From a virus, in IMG/VR virus record IMGVR_UViG_3300045784_000003, positions 1-35,381 of that record: a stretch of 35,381 nt of DNA. One strand, given 5' to 3'. Both the position numbers and the translations under genes were made by a program. This document shows, one piece after another, positions 15,150 to 30,521 of the stretch (position 1 is its first letter; each line of letters starts with the position of its first letter). The notes beneath the pieces were generated by a model, which was not told where the DNA came from, did not search any database, and worked only from the letters and a program-made list of their open reading frames with translations.

Positions 15150-15701
15150 ATGACAGCCCCTAAAGAAAGTTTAGCACCATTAACGCAGGAACAAGAAAAC
15201 ATATTTTGGTCGAAGGTAGACAAGAATGGACCTGTTGTTCGCGAGGGGTTGACGCCGTGCTGGGTATGGAAAGAGGGAAAAGCAAATACCGGATATGGTC
15301 AATTCACGATAAACCATGTAACGTATTTGGCGCATAGAATGGCTGTTTTTATTGCAAGAGGAACAGATGTGCATGATGGAGAGGCGTGTCATGCTTGCGA
15401 CAATCGACCGTGTGTGAATCCTGACCATATAGTAATTGCAGATCGAACGTACAATATGAGAGATGCGCTCAGTAGAGGTAGAGCTAGGCATATGGTTATG
15501 CGAGGAGTGGAACACCCTAGAGCTAGATTGACAGACGAAATTGTAGCGTCGATTCGAGAAGACGTTAAAAACGGAATCAAAATGAGATTATTGGCTGAAA
15601 AATGGAAGGTTTCTAAATGCACAATTAAGGACATAGTGCATTATCGAACTTGGAAAAATCCCTCATCTGTGAGTGTGGAAGTATGTATTCCCAAAAAATA
15701 A
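15150..15701 (+). CDS. HNH homing-type endonuclease
   Basis: 183 residues. FWSKVDKNG and CWVWKEGKANTGYGQFTINHVTYLAHRMAVFIARG are followed by ACHACDNRPCVNPDHIVIADRTYNMRDALSRGRA, the HNH_3-type nuclease core (H, N and H conserved, Cys for the metal). The C-terminus is a HTH (EIVASIREDVKNGIKMRLLAEKWKVSKCTIKDIV). Such free-standing genes spread by cutting copies that lack them. It lies directly before the terminase large subunit and overlaps its proposed start by 52 nt; its last 10-15 residues (after TWKN) may be a read-out of terminase DNA. Confidence 0.9.
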   Translation: MTAPKESLAPLTQEQENIFWSKVDKNGPVVREGLTPCWVWKEGKANTGYGQFTINHVTYLAHRMAVFIARGTDVHDGEACHACDNRPCVNPDHIVIADRTYNMRDALSRGRARHMVMRGVEHPRARLTDEIVASIREDVKNGIKMRLLAEKWKVSKCTIKDIVHYRTWKNPSSVSVEVCIPKK

Positions 15702-17848
15702 TAAATGCTCGATGTGACGAATTTACCAGACAAAATGGGTGGGAGCCTATTAGGCACTCGTATGAGCAGGTGAAAGAGTTCTCAGCGTACATAGAGACAT
15801 TAGTAAAAAAAGAGAGCAATTCAAAAAACACATATCTTACTATTTCCAAGCCTATAACAGCAAGGAGGGGAAATGAAATTAAGCATTGGATTGAAAATGA
15901 GCAGGTATTGTGTGCATTAGACAGCAGTTACTGGGAACAGAATTATGCTTTTGTATGTGACGAGAAAGGACAAATTTATAAGTTTAGTCCAAGATTGTCA
16001 CAGAGGATTTATGATTCCGTTATTTCAGACTTCGACGAAAAGCAAGTATCTATAGAGTTGCTAATTTTGAAAGGAAGACAATTAGGAATAACTACTCAAA
16101 CAGCATTAAAGTTCATCCATCGTATCATGTTTGTACCCCACACTCAGGCGATTATGGCATCCGTCAAGGCAAGCGCATCGGAACTGATTGAACGCATCCT
16201 TGACACAGCGTACAACCGCTGCCCGTGGTGGCTAGTTCCTAGAAAACTTCCTAAGAGAGCGTTTGATAACGGATCAATCCTTTCTATTCAGTCTGGTATG
16301 CAGGCTACAGGTCTAGCGCAAGGTTGGACCCCGACAAGCGTGCATCTGTCTGAACTTGCAGATGTTCCAGACCCTAAGAGGACTATCGAAGAGGGCCTAT
16401 TTAGAGCTACACACTCATCAAAAAATCTGTTCATGGTTTTGGAAGGAACTGGCGGCGGAAATACCGGCTGGCTTGCCGAGACGTGGCGTGCGTCAAAGGC
16501 TGATTGGCCGAGAGGGCGATCTAGGCTCTGCCCTGTGTTTATTCCGTGGCCAATGTGCCCAGAGATTTATCCAGAGACGGATTGGATTCGTAAATTCCCC
16601 GTAGAGGGGGGTTGGAAGCCTGCTGAAATGACGCGGAAGCACATTATGCGTTGTGAATCATATATTCGCAATACACCATACCTTGCTAAAGTTGCTGGAA
16701 AAGATTGGAGTATGCCAATCGAACAACAGTGGTTTTGGGAATTCAATTATCAATCCGCTTGCAAAAACCATACACAGAAGACGTGGGCTGCTCAAATGCC
16801 CGCCGATGACTTTGAGAGTTTGACGGGACTAAATGATGCGGTATTTGATATAGAAACTACAAATATGATCGACAATGACATATACACAGTCATTGGGTCA
16901 AACGATATAGGAGAGGATACAAAAGTACGCAAAGCTCCACTTCTAGCCTACGGAATCACAGGTCATTCGATACAAGAGAAGTTTAATCCTGACCCGTCTA
17001 CAATTGATTGGGATAGGGAAGCGATACGAATTACGTGGGTATCGAATAGAGATGAGCGGTACGACTGGGAAATGATTCCTCTCCTACCCGTCAATGAGGA
17101 TGTAGAAGCGGAGACGATGGATAAGCTCCTAGTGTATGAGGAGCCTAAGGAGGGGGAAGAATACTCGTGCGGAATCGATACAGCGCACGGTCTAGGAAAA
17201 GAAGACGAAGATAGGACTTGCATATCATTAACCAAGAAAGGAATAAATGCTGGTTACGACGAGCAGGTAGCAGAGTATACCAGTAATAAGTTAAGCCCCG
17301 CACAGACGGTTCCTTTTGCTGCATGTATAGCAGCATGGTACGGAAAGAAGAATAAAGACCCTAGAGGGGTCAAGTTTGCGATTGAGCAGACAATGGGTCC
17401 GGGAGATATTTGCCAGAACCAATTGAAGATTATGGGATTCAACCACCATATAAAGAGTTTTCGTTTGTACGCAAAGAAGATTAAGGATGAGCAGAAGAAT
17501 CGTGAAGGTTTCTACTCTAATAGTGTAACTGTTCCTATTCTGATGGACTTTTACACGGAAGCGGTTGATGGAGGATGGTACAAGCCGAAATCCAAGTGGC
17601 ACATTGAAGAACTGAAGACTCTTGAGCGTCATGTTAAAGATGGTGGTAAGGACCGAATGGAACACCGTCAAGGGCAGCATGATGACAGGGTTAGGGCTGC
17701 TGCAATGAGTTATGTGGCGTTCCATACGTATGACGATCTTGCAGCGAGGTCACAAAGGAGATACGACGCTCCGCAAGGAAAAAAATCGTTGACAAAGGGT
17801 ATTTGCATGGCAAACAGTGTTAGTATTGGAGAGGGTTGGGAAGAATAA
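15650..17848 (+). CDS. Terminase large subunit
   Basis: 732 residues from TTG 15650; ATG 15683 is an alternative, neither with a strong ribosome site. The ATPase has LKGRQLGITT (residues 140-149, Walker A variant) and SVHLSELADVP (230-240, Walker B with Glu), then LEGTGGGNTG (coupling region). The RuvC-like nuclease has CGIDTAHGLGKEDEDRT (Asp510), FAIEQ (Glu579) and HDDRVRAA (Asp678/679). It packages phage DNA into the prohead with the portal at 22944 and cuts concatemers. Length is above the usual 450-600, with an extra 130 residues at the N-terminus. The HNH gene at its 5' end may have disturbed its start. Confidence 0.93.
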   Translation: MEKSLICECGSMYSQKIINARCDEFTRQNGWEPIRHSYEQVKEFSAYIETLVKKESNSKNTYLTISKPITARRGNEIKHWIENEQVLCALDSSYWEQNYAFVCDEKGQIYKFSPRLSQRIYDSVISDFDEKQVSIELLILKGRQLGITTQTALKFIHRIMFVPHTQAIMASVKASASELIERILDTAYNRCPWWLVPRKLPKRAFDNGSILSIQSGMQATGLAQGWTPTSVHLSELADVPDPKRTIEEGLFRATHSSKNLFMVLEGTGGGNTGWLAETWRASKADWPRGRSRLCPVFIPWPMCPEIYPETDWIRKFPVEGGWKPAEMTRKHIMRCESYIRNTPYLAKVAGKDWSMPIEQQWFWEFNYQSACKNHTQKTWAAQMPADDFESLTGLNDAVFDIETTNMIDNDIYTVIGSNDIGEDTKVRKAPLLAYGITGHSIQEKFNPDPSTIDWDREAIRITWVSNRDERYDWEMIPLLPVNEDVEAETMDKLLVYEEPKEGEEYSCGIDTAHGLGKEDEDRTCISLTKKGINAGYDEQVAEYTSNKLSPAQTVPFAACIAAWYGKKNKDPRGVKFAIEQTMGPGDICQNQLKIMGFNHHIKSFRLYAKKIKDEQKNREGFYSNSVTVPILMDFYTEAVDGGWYKPKSKWHIEELKTLERHVKDGGKDRMEHRQGQHDDRVRAAAMSYVAFHTYDDLAARSQRRYDAPQGKKSLTKGICMANSVSIGEGWEE

Positions 17849-17860
17849 AGGAGGAAAGAT

Positions 17861-18529
17861 ATGAGCGAGAAGAAATACGCAGTACCGGATGGAATGCTAG
17901 AAGCGGCTTGGCTGGCAATAGACAGGTCTGATTTTGAAAAGACAATAGGCAAAAAAGGTAAACTGAAAATAGCCCTTGAAGCGGCTATTCGTTGGCAGTC
18001 CAGCAGAAGCCCCAACATTTCTGCTGAACTTCTTGACCTATTGGCTTGTGACGCACACGTAAGCAAGGTCGCCGCATACGACATTGTTGATATTGCGTTG
18101 CGCCGCATTTATCTCGCGCCTGAACCAGAAGTTCCAGAGGATATAAAAGGAATGCAATATATCAATCTTGCTTCGATTGAGAATCAGGCACAGCTTGACC
18201 GTTTGGTGACTGAATTGAATGTGGTTGCGTTTAATCGTGGCGTTGAAGCGGAAAGAGATATAATTATCAACAAAAATGATAAAGAGAAAAAAATGGAATA
18301 TTTATTAAGATTTAACATGGCCAAAGAACTGGAGAACCTGCTTAGTAGAGGAGAAGAAAGAAGCCCGTACACTGACAAACTAATATCCGAATCGTTTTTA
18401 TGCGGTAGGGAATCTGTAGTCTCCATTTTTGAAGAGCAGGAGAAGAGCGGGGAATTTACCAAGGAAGAAATTATCGACGGTATAAAATCAATATGTGAAA
18501 GTAGACACGGTAGAGGAGAGAAGAAATGA
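17861..18529 (+). CDS. Member 3 of the four-copy phage paralog family
   Basis: 222 residues; the longest copy. MSEKKYAVPDGMLEAAW, LEAAIRWQSS, IALRRIYLAPEPEVPEDIKGM, DRLVTELNVVAFNRG, then an extra 80-residue charged helical tail (EKKMEYLLRFNMAKELENLLSRGEE...) with a second 'ISESFLCGRESVV' echo of the AFRRGQKS block. The AAGGAGG ribosome site is strong. The adjacent terminase shows that copies sit in both early and late regions. Confidence 0.75.
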   Translation: MSEKKYAVPDGMLEAAWLAIDRSDFEKTIGKKGKLKIALEAAIRWQSSRSPNISAELLDLLACDAHVSKVAAYDIVDIALRRIYLAPEPEVPEDIKGMQYINLASIENQAQLDRLVTELNVVAFNRGVEAERDIIINKNDKEKKMEYLLRFNMAKELENLLSRGEERSPYTDKLISESFLCGRESVVSIFEEQEKSGEFTKEEIIDGIKSICESRHGRGEKK

Positions 18530-19014
18530 TTGGATTAACGTCTAAATTTCATCGGTTTATAGCGGAAGCAGGACTAGCTGTATCCTCTATTATTGCTCCA
18601 ACGTCTATGCACGCTGAGCCAGTCCAACCTGAAAAGAGGAGAAAGGCTCCATCCAATCGAGACGGCGTTAGGTCGTCAGATTTCATGGAAGATTCCAAGT
18701 GGGAAGGAATCAAATGGTTTGATAGCCGATTGGCAGTGTATACCGTGCTGGACGAGATGGTGAACTTTCAAGCCCCCGACAAGGAAGGTCACTTTTGGAA
18801 GTCCGTTACCTACAAGATAGAAGTGGACGGAGAAGTTTCGTATTGCGTTCTGAGTGGAATAAGGAATGACGGCAAGAGTATTTCAGTCAAGGCGAAGATC
18901 GAAAAAGAGGGCAGCATTGATGAGTTGTTTTATGGACTGTGCAAGGATTTGAATGGTGGAAATTGGAAGAAACCAATATCGAGAATCGTAGGGGTAGATG
19001 GTTTTAGGGGGTAA
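18526..19014 (+). CDS. Unknown 162-aa protein
   Basis: ATGA overlap with the previous gene. GLTSKFHRFIAEAGLAVSSIIAPTSMHAEP is a mildly hydrophobic N-terminus with a short AEP motif that only loosely resembles a secretion signal. The body (KWFDSRLAVYTVLDEMVNFQAPDKEGHFWKSVTYKIEVDGEVSY) is alpha/beta. Not recognised. Confidence 0.6.
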   Translation: MIGLTSKFHRFIAEAGLAVSSIIAPTSMHAEPVQPEKRRKAPSNRDGVRSSDFMEDSKWEGIKWFDSRLAVYTVLDEMVNFQAPDKEGHFWKSVTYKIEVDGEVSYCVLSGIRNDGKSISVKAKIEKEGSIDELFYGLCKDLNGGNWKKPISRIVGVDGFRG

Positions 19015-19018
19015 GACG

Positions 19019-19795
19019 ATGGATAGAATAGAAATTCTCAAGCAAGAACTAGCTGCAATCAAGCAGCAATGCAAGGCAGACGCTCTAGCGATCAAGAAGT
19101 CGAAACAGTGGGTAAGCATTAAGAACGCTCTTCCTGACGCGAACACAAAACGCGCAATTGTGTGGTCGAATAGGAAGATGTATCCATGTTGGTTCTCAGA
19201 TGGCAAGTGGTACGCCTTCAATGGAACGTGGATGCTGACTAAGGATGACGTTATGGATGTTGTCAGCCATTGGATGCCTACCGACTGGATGAACGCTCTT
19301 TATTGGCCTCAGTGCGGACCAGGAATCGTTAACCGTTTGCGTTATCTGTGGCAGAGGGTGACGGATAAGGCGTCGGACATGACGGTTGACCTACGACCGA
19401 AGAGACGGGGAAATGCTCAACTGGGTAGGAAACCAGTGTTTTACACTAACAGTTTAGGTGAAATCACGTCTGGAATGCCAGAGAATGTCCCTGTTCCGCG
19501 AGGATATGAGAAGGTGGTTTGCAATAGTGTCCAAGAGGCAGAGCATTGGAGTGAGCGTCAGAGGCAGTGGGAGAGGGTGAAGCACGGTAAGATTCAAGAA
19601 GACAGGCAGAGGATTGAAGAGCCAATTCATCAAGAAATTAGAAGTGAAATGCACAATAGGATGAGTAATGCTAGGAATAGCGTAAATAGGGAATTCATGC
19701 GACGGGCGATTGAAACTAGCGATGCAAAGCATAGTCCGTGGAAGTACGATAGGGAATCGTATCTACATAGTGAGGCGTTTGAAGATAAGCGTTAA
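19019..19795 (+). CDS. DUF551-like protein fused to a phage C-terminal domain
   Basis: ATG 19019 follows AGGGGGTAAGACG. Residues about 28-92, QWVSIKNALPDANTKRAIVWSN ... WMLTKDDVMDVVSHWMPTD, match the DUF551 pattern (opening W-V-S-x-x-x-x-L-P and ending HWMP). Residues about 120-258 have GRKPVFYTNSLGEITSGMPENVPVPRGYEKVVCNSVQEAEHWSER, then a helix-rich IEEPIHQEIRSEMHNRMSNARNSVNREFMRRAIE and WKYDRESYLHSEAF. I recall this second part as a free-standing phage structural-region protein. The fusion is notable; function unknown. Confidence 0.65.
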   Translation: MDRIEILKQELAAIKQQCKADALAIKKSKQWVSIKNALPDANTKRAIVWSNRKMYPCWFSDGKWYAFNGTWMLTKDDVMDVVSHWMPTDWMNALYWPQCGPGIVNRLRYLWQRVTDKASDMTVDLRPKRRGNAQLGRKPVFYTNSLGEITSGMPENVPVPRGYEKVVCNSVQEAEHWSERQRQWERVKHGKIQEDRQRIEEPIHQEIRSEMHNRMSNARNSVNREFMRRAIETSDAKHSPWKYDRESYLHSEAFEDKR

Positions 19796-21038: not shown

Positions 21039-21313
21039 GAACAAAATTCAGATTTAAGGTAGGCGATAAGGTATGGGTGAGGGACCACGTACATCCATCA
21101 AAGAATAAAGGGTTGGCAAGGAGTATGGGTGGATTCTCTATCGTACAGGCTACGGTCCGTGAACGTCACCAGCATATTGATAGACACCCATTCTATCCCA
21201 ATGGAGAAGGGTACGCTCTAGATGGTGAATTGTGGTGGGACTGCTATCCCGGATGCCGAGTGTTCGCAACGAGGGAAGATGCTGTAGCGGCGAGAATGGG
21301 TGCCATTCGATGA
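21035..21313 (+). CDS. Unknown 92-aa protein, SH3-like
   Basis: ATGA overlap. RFKVGDKVWVRDHVHPSKNKGLARSMGGFSIVQATVRERH, then GELWWDCYPGCRVFATREDAVAARMG. The KVGDKVWVRD opening is typical of small SH3-like beta barrels. Unknown role. Its stop overlaps the start of the broken gene at 21310. Confidence 0.6.
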   Translation: MRTKFRFKVGDKVWVRDHVHPSKNKGLARSMGGFSIVQATVRERHQHIDRHPFYPNGEGYALDGELWWDCYPGCRVFATREDAVAARMGAIR

Positions 21314-21408
21314 GCAATGCTATTCCACCTCGTCTTTGTGAGCGCGTTTGCGATGCGGGCAGGACGGAAATGGAAGCAGAGGATATTCTTAACGAAAAAG
21401 CTCCGTAA
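21310..21408 (+). pseudogene. 5' part of a Zn-binding gene split by the IS element
   Basis: ATGA overlap with the previous gene. The first 28 codons (MSNAIPPRLCERVCDAGRTE...) are phage-derived; the last residues EKAP are read from the element's left end before TAA. CERVC supplies one Cys pair. The 3' part lies at 22693-22872, where a continued frame ends in a second Cys pair. Removing bases 21394-22692 (1299, divisible by 3) rejoins both parts in frame. Confidence 0.7.
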
Positions 21409-21452
21409 ATCCCCTATCTTTAGATATGGGGATATAAGGCGTTCCTTTGCGC

Positions 21453-21481
21453 TTGACTTTTACACTGTGTGGTGTTAAGAT
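21453..21481 (+). promoter_or_regulatory. tnpB promoter
   Basis: TTGACT (21453-21458), spacer of 17, TAAGAT (21476-21481), only 6 nt before the ATG at 21488. The mRNA is nearly leaderless, so translation would be weak; no ribosome site is seen. Confidence 0.55.
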
Positions 21482-21487
21482 TAAACC

Positions 21488-22675
21488 ATGTTGAATGCGA
21501 CCAAAGTCCGTCTCTATCCTACGCCTGAGCAAGAACACTTTCTTGCATGTCAGTTTGGATGTGCGCGGTGGGCGTGGAATTGGGCTTTGGAAAACACACA
21601 AAATACGTACAGGGAAACCGGAAAAGGTCTGACATTTTTTCAAATGATTCCTCTTTTGCCACCGCTAAAAAAAGAACACGAATGGCTTCATGACGCTTAT
21701 TCTCAAGTTCTCCAAGCATCATTACGCAATCTTGCGGCATCGTTTCAAAACTTCTTTGAGAAGCGGGCGCGGTATCCAAGGTTTAAGTCAAAGCACGGCA
21801 AGCAGTCGATTCAGTATCCGCAGAATGTGAAAATTGTAGGAAGTAAGATACATTTTCCCAAGGTAGGAGATGTTGAGGCCGTGATTCACCGTGAGATTGT
21901 TGGACAAATCAAGACGGTTACGGTGAGCAAGAACCCCTGCGGTCACTACTACGCTTCAATCCTAACTGATGACGATATTCCTATGCCTCCGATTTCAACG
22001 AATGGAAAGGCTATCGGAATTGATGTAGGGTTGACACATTTAGCCATTACTAGCGACGGATCGAAGTTTAACAATCCTCGTTTCATTGCCAAGTCAGAAA
22101 AGAATCTCAAGCGTAAACAGCAGTCTTTAAGTCGTAAGAAGAAAGGTTCCAAGTCGCGTAATAATGCACGTTTGCTAGTTGCGCGAGTCCATGAACGTAT
22201 CACAAATCAGCGTCGTGATTATCTTCACAAAGTCTCTCGTAGGATCGTAGACGAGAACCAAGTCATTGTTACGGAAGACTTAAACGTGAAGGGAATGACG
22301 GCCAACCATAACTTAGCAAAAGCAGTATCAGATATAGGTTGGGGAACACTAACAGCATTTATCAAGTACAAAGCAGAGCGCGACGGAAAGGCATTCATCA
22401 AGGTAAGTCGATGGTTCCCGTCAAGCAAAGTATGTTCAGAGTGCGGCTACCAAATAGGCGAGATGCCATTGGATGTACGCTCTTGGACCTGCCCATTATG
22501 CAATACACATCATGACCGCGATATAAACGCGGCAAGGAATATCCGGGACGAAGGTCTACGGATTTTGGCGTCAGGGATTGGCGCTACTGCCGGTGGAGGC
22601 AACATAAGACGAAAGTTGGGACGCAAGTCTTCAACTAACGAAGATGCCGTTGAATCCGGAAGCCCCCGTCTTTAG
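21488..22675 (+). CDS. tnpB: TnpB RNA-guided nuclease
   Basis: 395 residues, the usual length. N-terminal KVRLYPTPEQEHFLACQFGCARWAWNWAL is the family's opening domain. RuvC parts: IGIDVGLTHLAITSD (Asp179), VTEDLNVKGM (Glu263) and HDRDINAARNI (Asp345). Zinc finger: CSECG (316/319) and CPLC (335/338). All catalytic residues are kept, so it is probably active. TnpB cuts DNA guided by an RNA made from the element's right end and following DNA. The stop codon lies in the loop of the right-end hairpin, as is typical. Confidence 0.97.
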   Translation: MLNATKVRLYPTPEQEHFLACQFGCARWAWNWALENTQNTYRETGKGLTFFQMIPLLPPLKKEHEWLHDAYSQVLQASLRNLAASFQNFFEKRARYPRFKSKHGKQSIQYPQNVKIVGSKIHFPKVGDVEAVIHREIVGQIKTVTVSKNPCGHYYASILTDDDIPMPPISTNGKAIGIDVGLTHLAITSDGSKFNNPRFIAKSEKNLKRKQQSLSRKKKGSKSRNNARLLVARVHERITNQRRDYLHKVSRRIVDENQVIVTEDLNVKGMTANHNLAKAVSDIGWGTLTAFIKYKAERDGKAFIKVSRWFPSSKVCSECGYQIGEMPLDVRSWTCPLCNTHHDRDINAARNIRDEGLRILASGIGATAGGGNIRRKLGRKSSTNEDAVESGSPRL

Positions 22676-22710
22676 ACGTGGGGTAATTCACATATACGGC
22701 AGACTTGGCA
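22580..22710 (+). ncRNA. Putative omega/right-end RNA and guide of TnpB
   Basis: In known elements the guide RNA spans the 3' end of tnpB and the right end, and the guide is the DNA just after the element. Here the scaffold would end near 22692 and the guide would start ATATACGG or TATACGG. Coordinates are approximate; no RNA boundary can be seen directly. Confidence 0.45.
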
Positions 22711-22872
22711 AATCAGTACGGAGAATCGTTCATGCTATCTCACCCGTATACGCCTGGATGTGGAACACGTTTTCAGTGGTATTGGGGGATGAATGTTCTC
22801 TGCCCGAATTGTGGACGCTTATATGAATCTAAATTTGAATACCTAAAATCTGGAAAGTACGATCCTAAGTAA
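22693..22872 (+). pseudogene. 3' part of the split Zn-binding gene
   Basis: A frame with no start of its own: YTADLANQYGESF, SHPYTPGCGTRFQWYW, NVLCPNCGRLYESKFEYL, ending DPK. CGT and CPNC give Cys ligands for a zinc ribbon. It is in frame with the 5' part at 21310 when the element is removed, giving about 88 residues. A T7 tract follows the stop. Confidence 0.65.
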
Positions 22873-22943: not shown

Positions 22944-25082
22944 TTGGGAGGCTGGTGTACCGAGAAGAACGGAAGTTTCGTGGGGTATATCGACATAAGT
23001 TCAGGAAATGGAACTTCTCGCGTAGAGAGCGACACGGTACGCTGGCAGTGCCCTCCTTTTGAGAGACCTCCCTCTGAGCGCGTCGGGTGGGTTGAGGAAA
23101 TGATTGCCGAGGGTGAGGGTTTTCTTTCCGCCCAAAAATGCTATCAGGAACTAGGAAAAAACCTTCGCGTCTTTGATGCGGCGTTTAGGGACAAGTCCCG
23201 TAGCTCACTGATAACGAACGAATTAAAGTACGATATACGAAAGTTTTGCGAGACCCTTTCTGAAGTAAGAGAGATTGCTGGTTACGCTTCTGATTCCCCC
23301 GCATACAAAAAAATAGCTGAGATGCTTACGAAGGTCTCAAAGTGCGTTTATTTCGAGTCTGATTTTCCTTTCCAAATCCTAAAAGTTCTGCAATACGCAG
23401 CGGTCATGGGTATCGGATACCTGTGGCCTAAAGTCAGTGCGGATGAATATGGATACGGAGAGAGGAAGATGCGCTTCGAGGCTTTGGGACTTTTGGATGT
23501 AGTACCAGTCCAGATTCCGAAGTCGAACGACGTGCAGGATGCTTATGCGGTCACGATCTACGATTATATGCCTATCGCGGAAGCGTTTGGTAGATTTCCT
23601 CTATTCCAAACCAAACTACAAACGGTAGGGCGCAGGAACTACGCAAACCAAGTTCAGGCAAGGCGTCAGGACTTTGCAGAGCATTATCGTTATGGTGACA
23701 ATGGCAGGAGTTTTGGTGACCTGTATACGGAAATACGTTATACATTCATTCGAGATTTGAGGATCAATAATACAGGTTTTGAGCTTCCTATGGGGGACAT
23801 AGGAACATCATGGTTTTACAAGGTTCCTACGGTAGGACAACAGATATTGGGTGGAGTAGAAAACGGTAAACCAGCAAAGCGCACAGCGATACCCGAAGAT
23901 TGTAGAGTGTATCCTAACCTTCGCCTAATCATTACATCTAGCGGATTAGACGAACCGATGTATGACGGTCCTGCGTTCGATTGGGACAGCAAAATGCCAA
24001 TTATTCAATATACGGTTGATGATTGGGCGTGGGAGCCGATGGGACGTTCCTTGGTAGGGGACGTGGCAACAATTGAGACCACGGTTCGTAAGCACGAAAG
24101 GAAAATGGATGCCGTCATTACCGTCAGATTGAACCCCCCTATGGGCTACAACGCCGACGAAAACGGTGGACAAAAGATTGAGCACATGGATTTGTTTGAG
24201 GAAGACGTAAGGATGGGACTGTTTGGTGGTAAGCCAAAGGAAACATTCCAATCCGTTCTTCCAGATGAGGTAAATGTAACGGAAACGAATTTCAAGTTCT
24301 TAGAATATCTCGGCAAGAAGAGAGAGAAGCAATTAGGTCTGCAAGACCTTGGCAACATGGCAAACTTGAAGTTGAATGTTGCCAGCGCAGATGCAATGGA
24401 TAAAGCAATTGAGTCTATTGGTCCTATCGCCAAAGGGATCGCGGCACGAGTAGAGAAGGCCAATAAGGCAGTAGGAAATAGAGTTAAATTCCTGATTCTA
24501 CAATGGTTTGACACTAACAGGATTATGTCCTACGTTGGTCCCGACAATGTTGCGCCAGAGGTATTTGACTACAATCCAAACGATCTCGTTCCTAGCCACA
24601 TGCCAGATGAAATGATAAACGGGAATTTCCCTAATTCGTCATCGGTGTATGACAAGTTGACTAGGGCACGGTGGTTTGCGAAACAGATTAGGCTTCTTCC
24701 TGTGGCTGGGACGTTGCTGAAGTTGACGCAGCAAGCCGAACAATTGAAATTCTTGACGCTGAAGAGAACACCAGATTGCCCAGTAAGCTGGGGAACGGTG
24801 TTTAAGAAGTTGGACATACCCGATCCTGAAGGAGAGATGGAGAAGTATTTCAAGGAGCAAGTACAGTTGACGAAGATGAAGATTATCGCGGCAGCACTTG
24901 CGCAGGAAGAGATGAAGAAGATGGGGATGCAGCCCCCAGAAGACGGTAAGGGGCCAGGACAGAAGAGCGGAGCGCATCCTGGAGGTAGGCCGGGGGGCGA
25001 AGGAAAAAATCCAAAATCTCCACGGTTGGCACAAAAGGGTGGAGCGGGTGGAGAACCAAGGCCGGTAATCAAACAGTCGTAG
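22944..25082 (+). CDS. Portal protein
   Basis: 712 residues with a TTG start; no clear ribosome site, and a small frame starting ATG 22921 could couple to it. A GTG a few codons later after GGAAGTTTC is also possible. GWVEEMIAEGEGFLSAQKCYQELGKN is a portal-like N-terminal helix. LKVLQYAAVMGIGYLWPKV, then DVVPVQIPKSNDVQDAYAVTIYDYMPIAEAFGRFP, then the long helical stem at residues 475-640. The C-terminus is Pro/Gly/Lys-rich. Size (about 80 kDa), position after packaging genes and before scaffold/capsid, and the 'WEPMGRSLVGDVATIETTVRKHERKMDAVI' stem pattern all fit a portal. It forms the DNA entry ring of the head. Confidence 0.85.
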   Translation: MGGWCTEKNGSFVGYIDISSGNGTSRVESDTVRWQCPPFERPPSERVGWVEEMIAEGEGFLSAQKCYQELGKNLRVFDAAFRDKSRSSLITNELKYDIRKFCETLSEVREIAGYASDSPAYKKIAEMLTKVSKCVYFESDFPFQILKVLQYAAVMGIGYLWPKVSADEYGYGERKMRFEALGLLDVVPVQIPKSNDVQDAYAVTIYDYMPIAEAFGRFPLFQTKLQTVGRRNYANQVQARRQDFAEHYRYGDNGRSFGDLYTEIRYTFIRDLRINNTGFELPMGDIGTSWFYKVPTVGQQILGGVENGKPAKRTAIPEDCRVYPNLRLIITSSGLDEPMYDGPAFDWDSKMPIIQYTVDDWAWEPMGRSLVGDVATIETTVRKHERKMDAVITVRLNPPMGYNADENGGQKIEHMDLFEEDVRMGLFGGKPKETFQSVLPDEVNVTETNFKFLEYLGKKREKQLGLQDLGNMANLKLNVASADAMDKAIESIGPIAKGIAARVEKANKAVGNRVKFLILQWFDTNRIMSYVGPDNVAPEVFDYNPNDLVPSHMPDEMINGNFPNSSSVYDKLTRARWFAKQIRLLPVAGTLLKLTQQAEQLKFLTLKRTPDCPVSWGTVFKKLDIPDPEGEMEKYFKEQVQLTKMKIIAAALAQEEMKKMGMQPPEDGKGPGQKSGAHPGGRPGGEGKNPKSPRLAQKGGAGGEPRPVIKQS

Positions 25083-27294: not shown

Positions 27295-28569
27295 ATGCCA
27301 TTTACTCCGCAAGACCCGACCTACAATGAAATTGATTCCACTAACCTAGAGTCTGTAAGACGTGAAGTAGTGTGGAACAATTTCTTCGTTGGGACCCCAT
27401 TTCTTGAGAAGTTACGTGTTGCTGGTGTAGCTGACCCCTATCTTGGCGGCGCTGGCATGACTGAGGGCGTTCTTTACGGGCGTCCGCAGGGTTCCGCTGT
27501 AAGGCCCGGTCAGGACATTACAGTAACTCGCCAGCAGATCGATACCAAGCTGAAGTTCTGGCCGAAGGGCTACGCTGCATGGTTCCCGATGGACGACTGG
27601 GAAATGGACGATGGCTCTGGTCAGGGTGGAGTGATAAACTCTGGTCCATCCAAAATCTGCGACATCTACACCCTATTTTTAGAGGGGCTTACGATGCAGA
27701 TCAATACCATGCTGGAGATGGACTCTTTCAGACATGGTCAGGCATCGTCTAGCACGATTGGTGACAACCGTATTCTGTCATCGAATGGTTTGGATGAAGC
27801 CCTGAATAACGGTATTGACACCTCCCTGTATGGCAACCGCTATACCAGCTACGGAGCGCTGCAAAGGAACGGCAATATCGGCGTTGCCTTGAACGTCACG
27901 CCTCTGTATCTAGGACAGCAGGTAACGGGTGGAACGACCGCTGCTCCTGTAACCAGCAACCCTGGACAGATTGATTTTGGTGCGTTGATGAACCTTTGGA
28001 CCCGTTGTAAGGAAACGGGTGGTCAGCCTACGCTAGGAATCACGGGCGCTTTTGGATTTGCCGCAATTGCTACCGCTTTGGACACGTATCGCAGGGATGT
28101 ATCGAATATCAAGCATGATATTCGTTGGGATGCGCTGTCGTTCAACGGAGTTGATATTTTTGCCGATCCTCTGGCTCCATCTGCACAGGCACAGAACTTC
28201 ATTGCTCTTGGACCGAATGCTGGGGCATCGGGCAACACGAACTTGGTTGACGGTGTTGGATCGAACACGACCACGATTCAGTACCAGACACCTCAGTTCA
28301 CGAATGCAGCGGGCGGTTCAATTAACTTCTCGCCTACCAACTCTGGTTTGCCGTCGAATGCTTTGATTCAGCCTTCGGAAGCTCTTTACTTCCTAGAGCC
28401 TGATAGCTTCAAGCTGCGTACCACGGACAGGCCTGGATGGAACTTTGGCATTCGCAGGACTCAGTTGCCTTACAATGTTAGCGTCGACGCTATCTTTATG
28501 CGTTTGGCTACTAACTTGTACAACTGCCAGCCACGGCACTCTAACTATGCGTTTGGTTTTAGCGCCTAA
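27295..28569 (+). CDS. Major capsid protein
   Basis: 424 residues; AAAGGAAAACTAAC then ATG. NLESVRREVVWNNFFVGTPFLEKLR at the N-terminus, GRPQGSAVRPGQDITVTRQQIDTKLKFWPKGYAAWF and PFSMDDWEMD-like segments, and a C-terminal half with FIALGPNAGASGN and EALYFLEPDSFKLRTTDRPGWNFGIRRTQLPYNVSVDAIFMRLATNLYNCQPRH. The last segment fits the beta-sheet P-domain region seen at the end of phage capsid proteins. Position after scaffold and expression-type leader agree. HK97-type fold is inferred. Confidence 0.85.
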   Translation: MPFTPQDPTYNEIDSTNLESVRREVVWNNFFVGTPFLEKLRVAGVADPYLGGAGMTEGVLYGRPQGSAVRPGQDITVTRQQIDTKLKFWPKGYAAWFPMDDWEMDDGSGQGGVINSGPSKICDIYTLFLEGLTMQINTMLEMDSFRHGQASSSTIGDNRILSSNGLDEALNNGIDTSLYGNRYTSYGALQRNGNIGVALNVTPLYLGQQVTGGTTAAPVTSNPGQIDFGALMNLWTRCKETGGQPTLGITGAFGFAAIATALDTYRRDVSNIKHDIRWDALSFNGVDIFADPLAPSAQAQNFIALGPNAGASGNTNLVDGVGSNTTTIQYQTPQFTNAAGGSINFSPTNSGLPSNALIQPSEALYFLEPDSFKLRTTDRPGWNFGIRRTQLPYNVSVDAIFMRLATNLYNCQPRHSNYAFGFSA

Positions 28570-29522: not shown

Positions 29523-30521
29523 ATGCAACCTACACTGTTGAAGGGCTACCCGGACTTGATTGGAAGACGGCAGGCGTGGACTGAATATGTAAACGGTCCT
29601 GCGTCCTATGTTGCCGGGGGTGATCCTGTAATCCTTCCTTTGTATGGGATTCACATTGACGATGTTTTTGGTCCTGTCTACAGTATGAGCGGAAACTATT
29701 TAGCTACACCTATTCCTTCGGGAGTTGGTCCAAGGAATACGTGGAAATTAAAGTGGGCAGCATCATCCACTTCTTCTTCGGGTGGTTCGTCTGCTGTTAC
29801 GGCTAAACTTGGTAGTGCCGCGAGCTACGCGCTGTTAGCGTACTCAGGAATTACGAATACAGGAGCTACGTTAATTACGGGTGGTAACGCTGGTTCATAT
29901 CCTACCGCTACCATTACGGGATTAACGGCAACAAACTTCTCAGCCCCTGCGGCCATTGATAATGCGGATGCGCAAGCAGCCCAGACAGCATTAGCGGCGG
30001 CAATTACGTACTATCAAGGACTGACTCCTACCCTATCTGGTCTATCGAATTTGAGTACGGGTGGAAATGGCAGCACAGCGGCGACGTACACTCCTGGAAA
30101 TTACTTTTCAGTAGCCGCTTCTAGTTTGACGATGCCAACGGGTATTATTCTAGACGCGCAGGGCAATCCGAATGCACAGTTTGTATTCGTTGCAGGCTCG
30201 ACCATTAACTTAGCGAGTGGACAAACAGTATCATTAGTTAATGGAGCTACGGCAGCTAACGTAGTGTTTGTAGCTGGAAGTTCCTTTACTAGCGTTGCTA
30301 CTTCAACAATGAATGGTAACATCCTAGCAGTAGCAAGTGTCACCTTGGGTGGAGGAATACAGAATGGTCGTGCGCTAGCAAATACTGGAGCGGTAACTAT
30401 TGCGGCGGCAACTACTGTGACTGTCGTATCCTCGATTAACACATCTACAGGAGAGGTACCAGCAGGAACCAATTTATCCGCTGAAGTAATGCAAATTAGC
30501 GGATATTGTGGAGATTACTAA
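29523..30521 (+). CDS. Virion protein carrying a DUF3494 ice-binding-type domain
   Basis: 332 residues; AAGGAGAACCG then ATG. Residues 1-78 (GYPDLIGRRQAW, VNGPASYVAGGDPV, WKLKW) match the neighbour at 30579 at 43 of 78 positions without gaps. Residues about 95-302 are a whole DUF3494 domain: LGSAASYALLAYSGITNTG, ITGLTATNFS, YTPGNYFSVAASSLTMPTG, LDAQGNPNAQFVFVAGSTI, VNGATAANVVFVAGSS, MNGNILAVASVTL, NGRALANTGAVTI. Residues 306-329 (GEVPAGTNLSAEVMQISGY) match the neighbour again. A Ser/Gly linker (81-91) precedes the insert. DUF3494 proteins bind ice or act as adhesins; the role on a virion is unknown. Confidence 0.88.
   Translation: MQPTLLKGYPDLIGRRQAWTEYVNGPASYVAGGDPVILPLYGIHIDDVFGPVYSMSGNYLATPIPSGVGPRNTWKLKWAASSTSSSGGSSAVTAKLGSAASYALLAYSGITNTGATLITGGNAGSYPTATITGLTATNFSAPAAIDNADAQAAQTALAAAITYYQGLTPTLSGLSNLSTGGNGSTAATYTPGNYFSVAASSLTMPTGIILDAQGNPNAQFVFVAGSTINLASGQTVSLVNGATAANVVFVAGSSFTSVATSTMNGNILAVASVTLGGGIQNGRALANTGAVTIAAATTVTVVSSINTSTGEVPAGTNLSAEVMQISGYCGDY

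What the first reader, a model, noticed from the sequence alone, without database searches (positions are those of the whole stretch)
21310..22872. TnpB element splits a zinc-ribbon gene whose frame is restored on removal
The phage gene starts at 21310 in an ATGA overlap and continues at 22693 to TAA 22872. Cutting out 21394-22692 (1299 bases, a multiple of three) joins CERVC and CPNC into one small protein. The right-flank DNA just after the element is also where a TnpB guide would come from, so TnpB would aim at uninterrupted copies of this very gene, favouring retention or spread among co-infecting phages.
Basis: partly seen in the sequence, partly recalled or inferred. Interest (0 to 1): 0.68.

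Follow-up and report, generated by a model that had tools for sequence, protein, structure and literature searches.

The report
TnpB element splitting a phage gene
A small mobile element carrying the RNA-guided DNA cutter TnpB has inserted into a small cysteine-rich gene of a phage, and its guide RNA should match the uninterrupted version of that same gene; this is a clean new example of a known kind of selfish element rather than a new mechanism.

Summary
A tnpB-only IS200/IS605 (IS1341-type) element interrupts a small Cys4 phage gene between the terminase gene and a large gene that is probably the portal.

Real empty sites of related elements in Nostocaceae genomes read TTTAA^flank. The C of "TTAAC" is therefore the element's first base and TTCAC its last five. 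The insert is 21393-22691 (1299 bp), not 21394-22692. Removing it gives GAT ATT CTT AAA TAT ACG GCA (DILKYTA).

Twenty-three homologs in other phage contigs are uninterrupted. The closest (64, 59, 53%) align without gaps across the joint, and the best also reads DILK there. Four cysteines are invariant in 25/25 sequences; the insertion separates the first from the other three.

TnpB is intact (RuvC D/E/D; dN/dS about 0.14). The predicted guide starts at 22692 and matches the inferred intact allele in register beside CTTAA. A studied TnpB with the same TTCAC end accepts NTTAA (PMC11043419).

No TnpA is present. Four other same-species contigs also carry the element, and no element-free allele was found. 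Drive between phages is plausible but unshown. Known mechanism, new instance.

The parts
21310..21392 (+). 5' part of the interrupted small Cys4 phage gene (28 codons incl. first two bases of the joint codon; holds invariant Cys14)
   Evidence: Aligns with uninterrupted homologs L156-L158 and 20 more
21388..21392 (+). Target site and predicted TAM, CTTAA (family form TTTAA/NTTAA)
   Evidence: Empty sites of related elements read TTTAA^flank; NTTAA accepted by SisTnpB7 (PMC11043419)
21393..22691 (+). Inserted tnpB-only IS200/IS605-type element, 1299 bp, first base C, last five TTCAC
   Evidence: Copy comparison of ends and genuine empty sites; gapless fit of intact homologs
21409..21433 (+). 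Left-end hairpin (ATCCCCTATC-TTTA-GATATGGGGAT)
   Evidence: DNA fold; hairpins at the same place in cyanobacterial copies
21453..21481 (+). Promoter-like site TTGACT-17-TAAGAT upstream of tnpB (consensus match only)
   Evidence: 3 found, 3.1 expected by chance; TTGAC and the second box recur in L043/L045
21488..22675 (+). tnpB, 395 aa RNA-guided nuclease with intact RuvC motifs IDVG (178), TEDL (262), DRDI (343)
   Evidence: Pfam; NCBIfam guided_TnpB; PDB 8bf8 E 8.5e-77; residues; dN/dS 0.14
22540..22691 (+). Predicted omegaRNA (reRNA) scaffold; 5' limit approximate, overlapping the 3' end of tnpB
   Evidence: RNA fold z-score -2.9; right-end conservation past the coding part
22662..22684 (+). 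Right-end hairpin
   Evidence: Folds; same place, different sequence in related copies
22692..22711 (+). Predicted guide ATATACGGCAGACTTGGCAA, which is also the first 20 bases of the 3' part of the interrupted gene
   Evidence: Guide follows TTCAC directly in SisTnpB7 (PMC11043419) and comes from the flank in ISDra2 (PMC8612924); not tested here
22692..22872 (+). 3' part of the interrupted gene (invariant Cys51, 65, 68); could restart at ATG 22732 behind GGAGAA
   Evidence: Alignment with intact homologs; restart is a reading of the sequence

Best explanation
A non-autonomous IS200/IS605-type element (tnpB only, 1299 bp) inserted after a CTTAA site inside a small four-cysteine phage gene in the packaging region and split it. 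Shown by sequence comparison: the insertion, its exact ends, and the intact form of the gene in other phages. Inferred from the family: TnpA supplied from elsewhere moved the element; TnpB binds a right-end RNA whose 3' end copies the adjacent gene DNA; TnpB then cuts DNA carrying CTTAA + ATATACGGCAGACTTGG. That target is the junction re-formed after excision, or an element-free allele of the same gene in a co-infecting phage. Repair from an element-bearing copy would keep the element in the population.
For: TnpB identity and intact RuvC motifs; purifying selection; left- and right-end hairpins and TTCAC end shared with related copies; real empty sites TTTAA^flank; uninterrupted homologs with gapless fit; guide position and NTTAA motif match a characterised TnpB with the same end (PMC11043419); retention and drive known for the family (PMC8612924, PMC11870625).
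Against: No TnpA in the window or nine related phage records. No element-free conspecific allele seen, so the predicted target has not been found in nature. No expression or cleavage data. The identity pattern around the element gives no homing signal. Exact ends rest on relatives about 56-57% identical in TnpB.
Confidence: 0.82

Rival explanations
1. A passenger: the element inserted once, TnpB is silent or has no target in nature, and its presence in all sampled contigs merely reflects common descent of closely related phages.
For: All five contigs are near-identical around the element and no target allele is known. No TnpA. Phages L010 and L011 show the gene is dispensable.
Against: TnpB is full length with intact active site and dN/dS about 0.14 against phage relatives; both end hairpins are preserved.
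Confidence: 0.35
2. One reading: insert 21394-22692, empty site TTAAC^TATACGG, guide from 22693.
For: Gives the same length and frame, with joint codon AAC.
Against: The base after TTCAC varies freely among copies. Two independent sites with real empty alleles read TTTAA^flank.
Confidence: 0.05
3. A domesticated RNA-guided regulator (TldR-like) or a self-splicing IStron rather than a nuclease element.
For: Phages do carry TnpB-derived TldR regulators (PMC13418256); restoring the frame on removal would suit an IStron.
Against: RuvC motifs intact; no group I intron or other Rfam match in the window; both transposon ends kept.
Confidence: 0.03

Closest known systems
Sulfolobus islandicus IS605 TnpB7 (PMC11043419)
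   Same: Element ends in TTCAC, guide starts right after it, target motif TTTAA with NTTAA tolerated, TTCAC-flanked own copy spared
   Different: That element is IS605-type in an archaeon and was tested; here there is no tnpA, the carrier is a phage, and nothing has been tested
ISDra2 TnpB of Deinococcus radiodurans (PMC8612924)
   Same: Same protein fold (PDB 8bf8, E 8.5e-77), right-end RNA with guide from the flank, proposed cutting of the junction left after excision
   Different: ISDra2 carries tnpA and uses TTGAT
Cyanobacterial tnpB-only elements (e.g. L078, L085, Nostoc)
   Same: TnpB 56-57% identical; same ends C...TTCAC, same TTTAA target
   Different: Chromosomal and mostly intergenic; this one splits a phage gene at CTTAA
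TnpB gene drive in plasmids (PMC11870625) and phage homing endonucleases (PMC10448857)
   Different: Shown in plasmids, or for homing endonucleases in phages; not shown for TnpB in phages here

Membership tests
IS200/IS605 superfamily, IS1341-type (tnpB only) | TnpB with HTH, RuvC (D, E, D) and zinc-finger TNB domain | tested here: met
   Pfam; NCBIfam; PDB; motifs
IS200/IS605 superfamily, IS1341-type (tnpB only) | Subterminal imperfect hairpins at both ends | tested here: met
IS200/IS605 superfamily, IS1341-type (tnpB only) | Insertion 3' of a short T/A-rich target without target duplication | tested here: met
   Empty sites of related copies; gapless fit of intact homologs
IS200/IS605 superfamily, IS1341-type (tnpB only) | Y1 transposase TnpA (present in some members; isolated tnpB elements are recognised, PMC8612924) | tested here: not met
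   No PF01797 match in ten records; not a defining feature of the tnpB-only type
OMEGA / TnpB RNA-guided nuclease system | Right-end RNA with guide from the flank | tested here: inconclusive
   Scaffold folds (z -2.9), right-end conserved, expression unknown
OMEGA / TnpB RNA-guided nuclease system | RNA-guided cleavage next to the TAM | not testable with these tools
   Needs an assay
TldR (TnpB-derived repressor) | Inactivated RuvC site | tested here: not met
   D/E/D motifs intact
IStron | Group I intron within the element | tested here: not met
   No Rfam match in the window
Zinc ribbon (the interrupted gene) | Four metal-binding cysteines in a ribbon fold | tested here: inconclusive
   Four Cys invariant in 25/25; no Pfam family over its cutoff; AlphaFold pLDDT 82 but no significant PDB fold match

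The most novel reading that the evidence does not exclude
In phages, tnpB-only elements persist by RNA-guided homing alone: TnpB cuts element-free alleles of co-infecting phages and the element is copied in by recombination, without TnpA. Two related phage copies (L043, L045) have lost the left-end hairpin and have a degraded right-end hairpin, yet keep TnpB under purifying selection, as this would predict.
Probability: 0.2. Interest if true: 0.6.

Novelty: new member of a known kind. Interest (0 to 1): 0.32.

Why it matters
It gives a precisely bounded TnpB insertion in a phage gene whose intact form is known from relatives, so the exact target that the guide should cut can be written down and tested. 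If TnpB drives such elements through phage populations, RNA-guided nucleases would join homing endonucleases as forces shaping phage genomes. The mechanism itself is already described in bacteria and plasmids.

Tried and rejected
Boundary 21394-22691 (TTAAC as target), my own first reading from copy comparison: it would have left one extra base and broken the frame. Rejected when real empty sites showed that the C belongs to the element.

A frame-1 reading through the joint (IYGRLGK resembling L036 IIAGKLNG): rejected when closer homologs aligned without a gap.

Co-conversion tract around the element as evidence of homing: rejected, because an identical run of 13.0 kb elsewhere exceeds the 6.3-kb run here.

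Search for an element-free conspecific allele by right-flank 16-mer: only the four element-bearing contigs and six unrelated hits without the TTAA motif.

Rfam: no hit. Flank-ORF test on cyanobacterial copies: inconclusive, most insertions being intergenic. Phage collection search with the joined protein: no real relative. L075 could not fix the exact boundary because 23 bp between two TTAA sites are missing there.

Full report
WHAT IS THERE. The window is a 35,381-base IMG/VR virus record with a phage packaging region: terminase large subunit at 15650-17848 and major head protein at 27295-28569 (PHROGs). The 712-aa gene at 22944-25082 is probably the portal, by position only. Between 21310 and 22872 a small gene is interrupted by a tnpB gene. 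The encoded protein (395 aa) matches OrfB_IS605, the Cas12f1-like TNB domain and the HTH domain in Pfam, guided_TnpB in NCBIfam (369 bits, cutoff 100) and solved TnpB structures (8bf8, E 8.5e-77). The RuvC motifs IDVG, TEDL and DRDI are intact. Against the two next-closest phage copies (82 and 79% identical), dN/dS is 0.14.

WAS THE GENE REALLY WHOLE BEFORE? Yes, as far as relatives can tell. A profile search of viral contigs found 28 loci: four near-identical to the window, with the element, and 24 without it. Of those 24, 23 are single open frames and one (L174) has an in-frame TAG. The three closest, L156 (64%), L157 (59%) and L158 (53%), align with the joined protein without any gap across the joint. 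Four cysteines are invariant in all 25 sequences, and the insertion separates the first from the other three. In the closest relatives the gene also lies upstream of a relative of the 22944 gene. Phages L010 and L011, whose 22944-type protein is 96 and 92% identical, lack the gene at this place, so it appears dispensable.

EXACT ENDS. This is where the finding needed correction. Related elements in phages and cyanobacteria end in TTCAC followed by unrelated sequence, so the right end is 22691, not 22692. On the left, copies share TTAAC before the left-end hairpin, which alone cannot tell whether the C belongs to target or element. I joined the flanks of three cyanobacterial copies and searched 145 genomes of the family for each empty site. 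For L085 and L078 many relatives carry the uninterrupted site, and it reads TTTAA directly followed by the right flank (for example ATGAGTTTACCTTTAA^ATCAGTCC), without the C. The element therefore runs from C to TTCAC: 21393-22691 in the window. The inferred empty allele is GAT ATT CTT AAA TAT ACG GCA GAC, protein DILKYTAD; L156 reads DILKWTAE. That the length is a multiple of three is coincidence, since precise removal of any insert restores a frame.

THE GUIDE. The right end folds into a hairpin at the same place in the window and in most related copies, with different sequences. In Sulfolobus TnpB7 the element also ends in TTCAC, the guide begins with the next base, TTTAA is the TAM, NTTAA works equally well, and a TTCAC-flanked target is not cut (PMC11043419). 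By analogy the guide here starts at 22692 (ATATACGGCAGACTTGGCAA) and would match the inferred intact allele, CTTAA + ATATACGGCAGACTTGG, in register. The element-bearing copy would be spared because there the same sequence follows TTCAC. The closest intact relatives read CTCAAA, TTCAG or TTTAT at this place and differ at many target positions, so only very close relatives could be targets.

WHAT IS NOT SHOWN. No intact conspecific allele was found. An exact 16-base right-flank scan returned only the four element-bearing contigs and six unrelated sequences, and TTAAATATACGGCAGA is absent from all 231 loci held. There is no Y1 transposase in ten phage records, so movement would need TnpA from outside. 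The pair window / IMGVR 3300030044_000029 is mosaic: a 6.3-kb identical run surrounds the element, but a 13.0-kb run without it exists too, so this is no evidence of homing.

HOW IT MOST LIKELY WORKS. Shown: insertion into a gene that is whole in relatives, exact ends, intact TnpB. Inferred: TnpB with the flank-derived guide cuts the junction left after excision, as proposed for ISDra2 (PMC8612924). It may also cut element-free alleles of co-infecting phages, as demonstrated for plasmids (PMC11870625). Whether this happens in phages is open; a silent passenger remains a serious alternative.

COMPARISON AND NOVELTY. The defining features of a tnpB-only IS200/IS605 (IS1341-type) element that could be tested are met. 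The protein is not TldR-like (RuvC intact) and the element is not an IStron (no intron match). TnpB relatives are common in phages: 577 of 50,697 phage records carry one. This is a new, unusually well-bounded member of a known kind.

Noticed in passing
L161:2908-3231, L165:2908-3228, L171:2012-2338: Several uninterrupted homologs of the small Cys4 phage protein begin with a twin-arginine-like signal (e.g. MDQSRRKFFGIGAAAVAAAAIPTGAVA); Pfam TAT_signal E 0.0016-0.007 in two of them, below its cutoff. A phage protein exported by the Tat route would be unusual.
   Followed up: partly
L043:2900-4200, L045:2900-4210: The two closest phage TnpBs (82 and 79%) lack a recognisable left-end hairpin and have a degraded right-end hairpin, but keep the RuvC motifs, the TTCAC end and low dN/dS.
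   Followed up: partly
L174:2575-2841: One homolog of the Cys4 gene has an in-frame TAG inside the conserved GCGTRFRW*FG motif: a mutation, or a phage that reads TAG as an amino acid.
   Followed up: no
29523-30521: Ice-binding-like protein (Pfam Ice_binding, E 1.5e-30) encoded in this phage, after the head genes.
   Followed up: no
17903-19045: This stretch is replaced by unrelated DNA in the otherwise 98-99.6% identical contig IMGVR 3300030044_000029; the pair is a mosaic of identical and diverged blocks.
   Followed up: partly
L075 (Tolypothrix MAG) against L192: At this insertion the 23 bp between two TTAA sites are missing compared with the empty site, suggesting insertion or excision using two neighbouring targets.
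   Followed up: no
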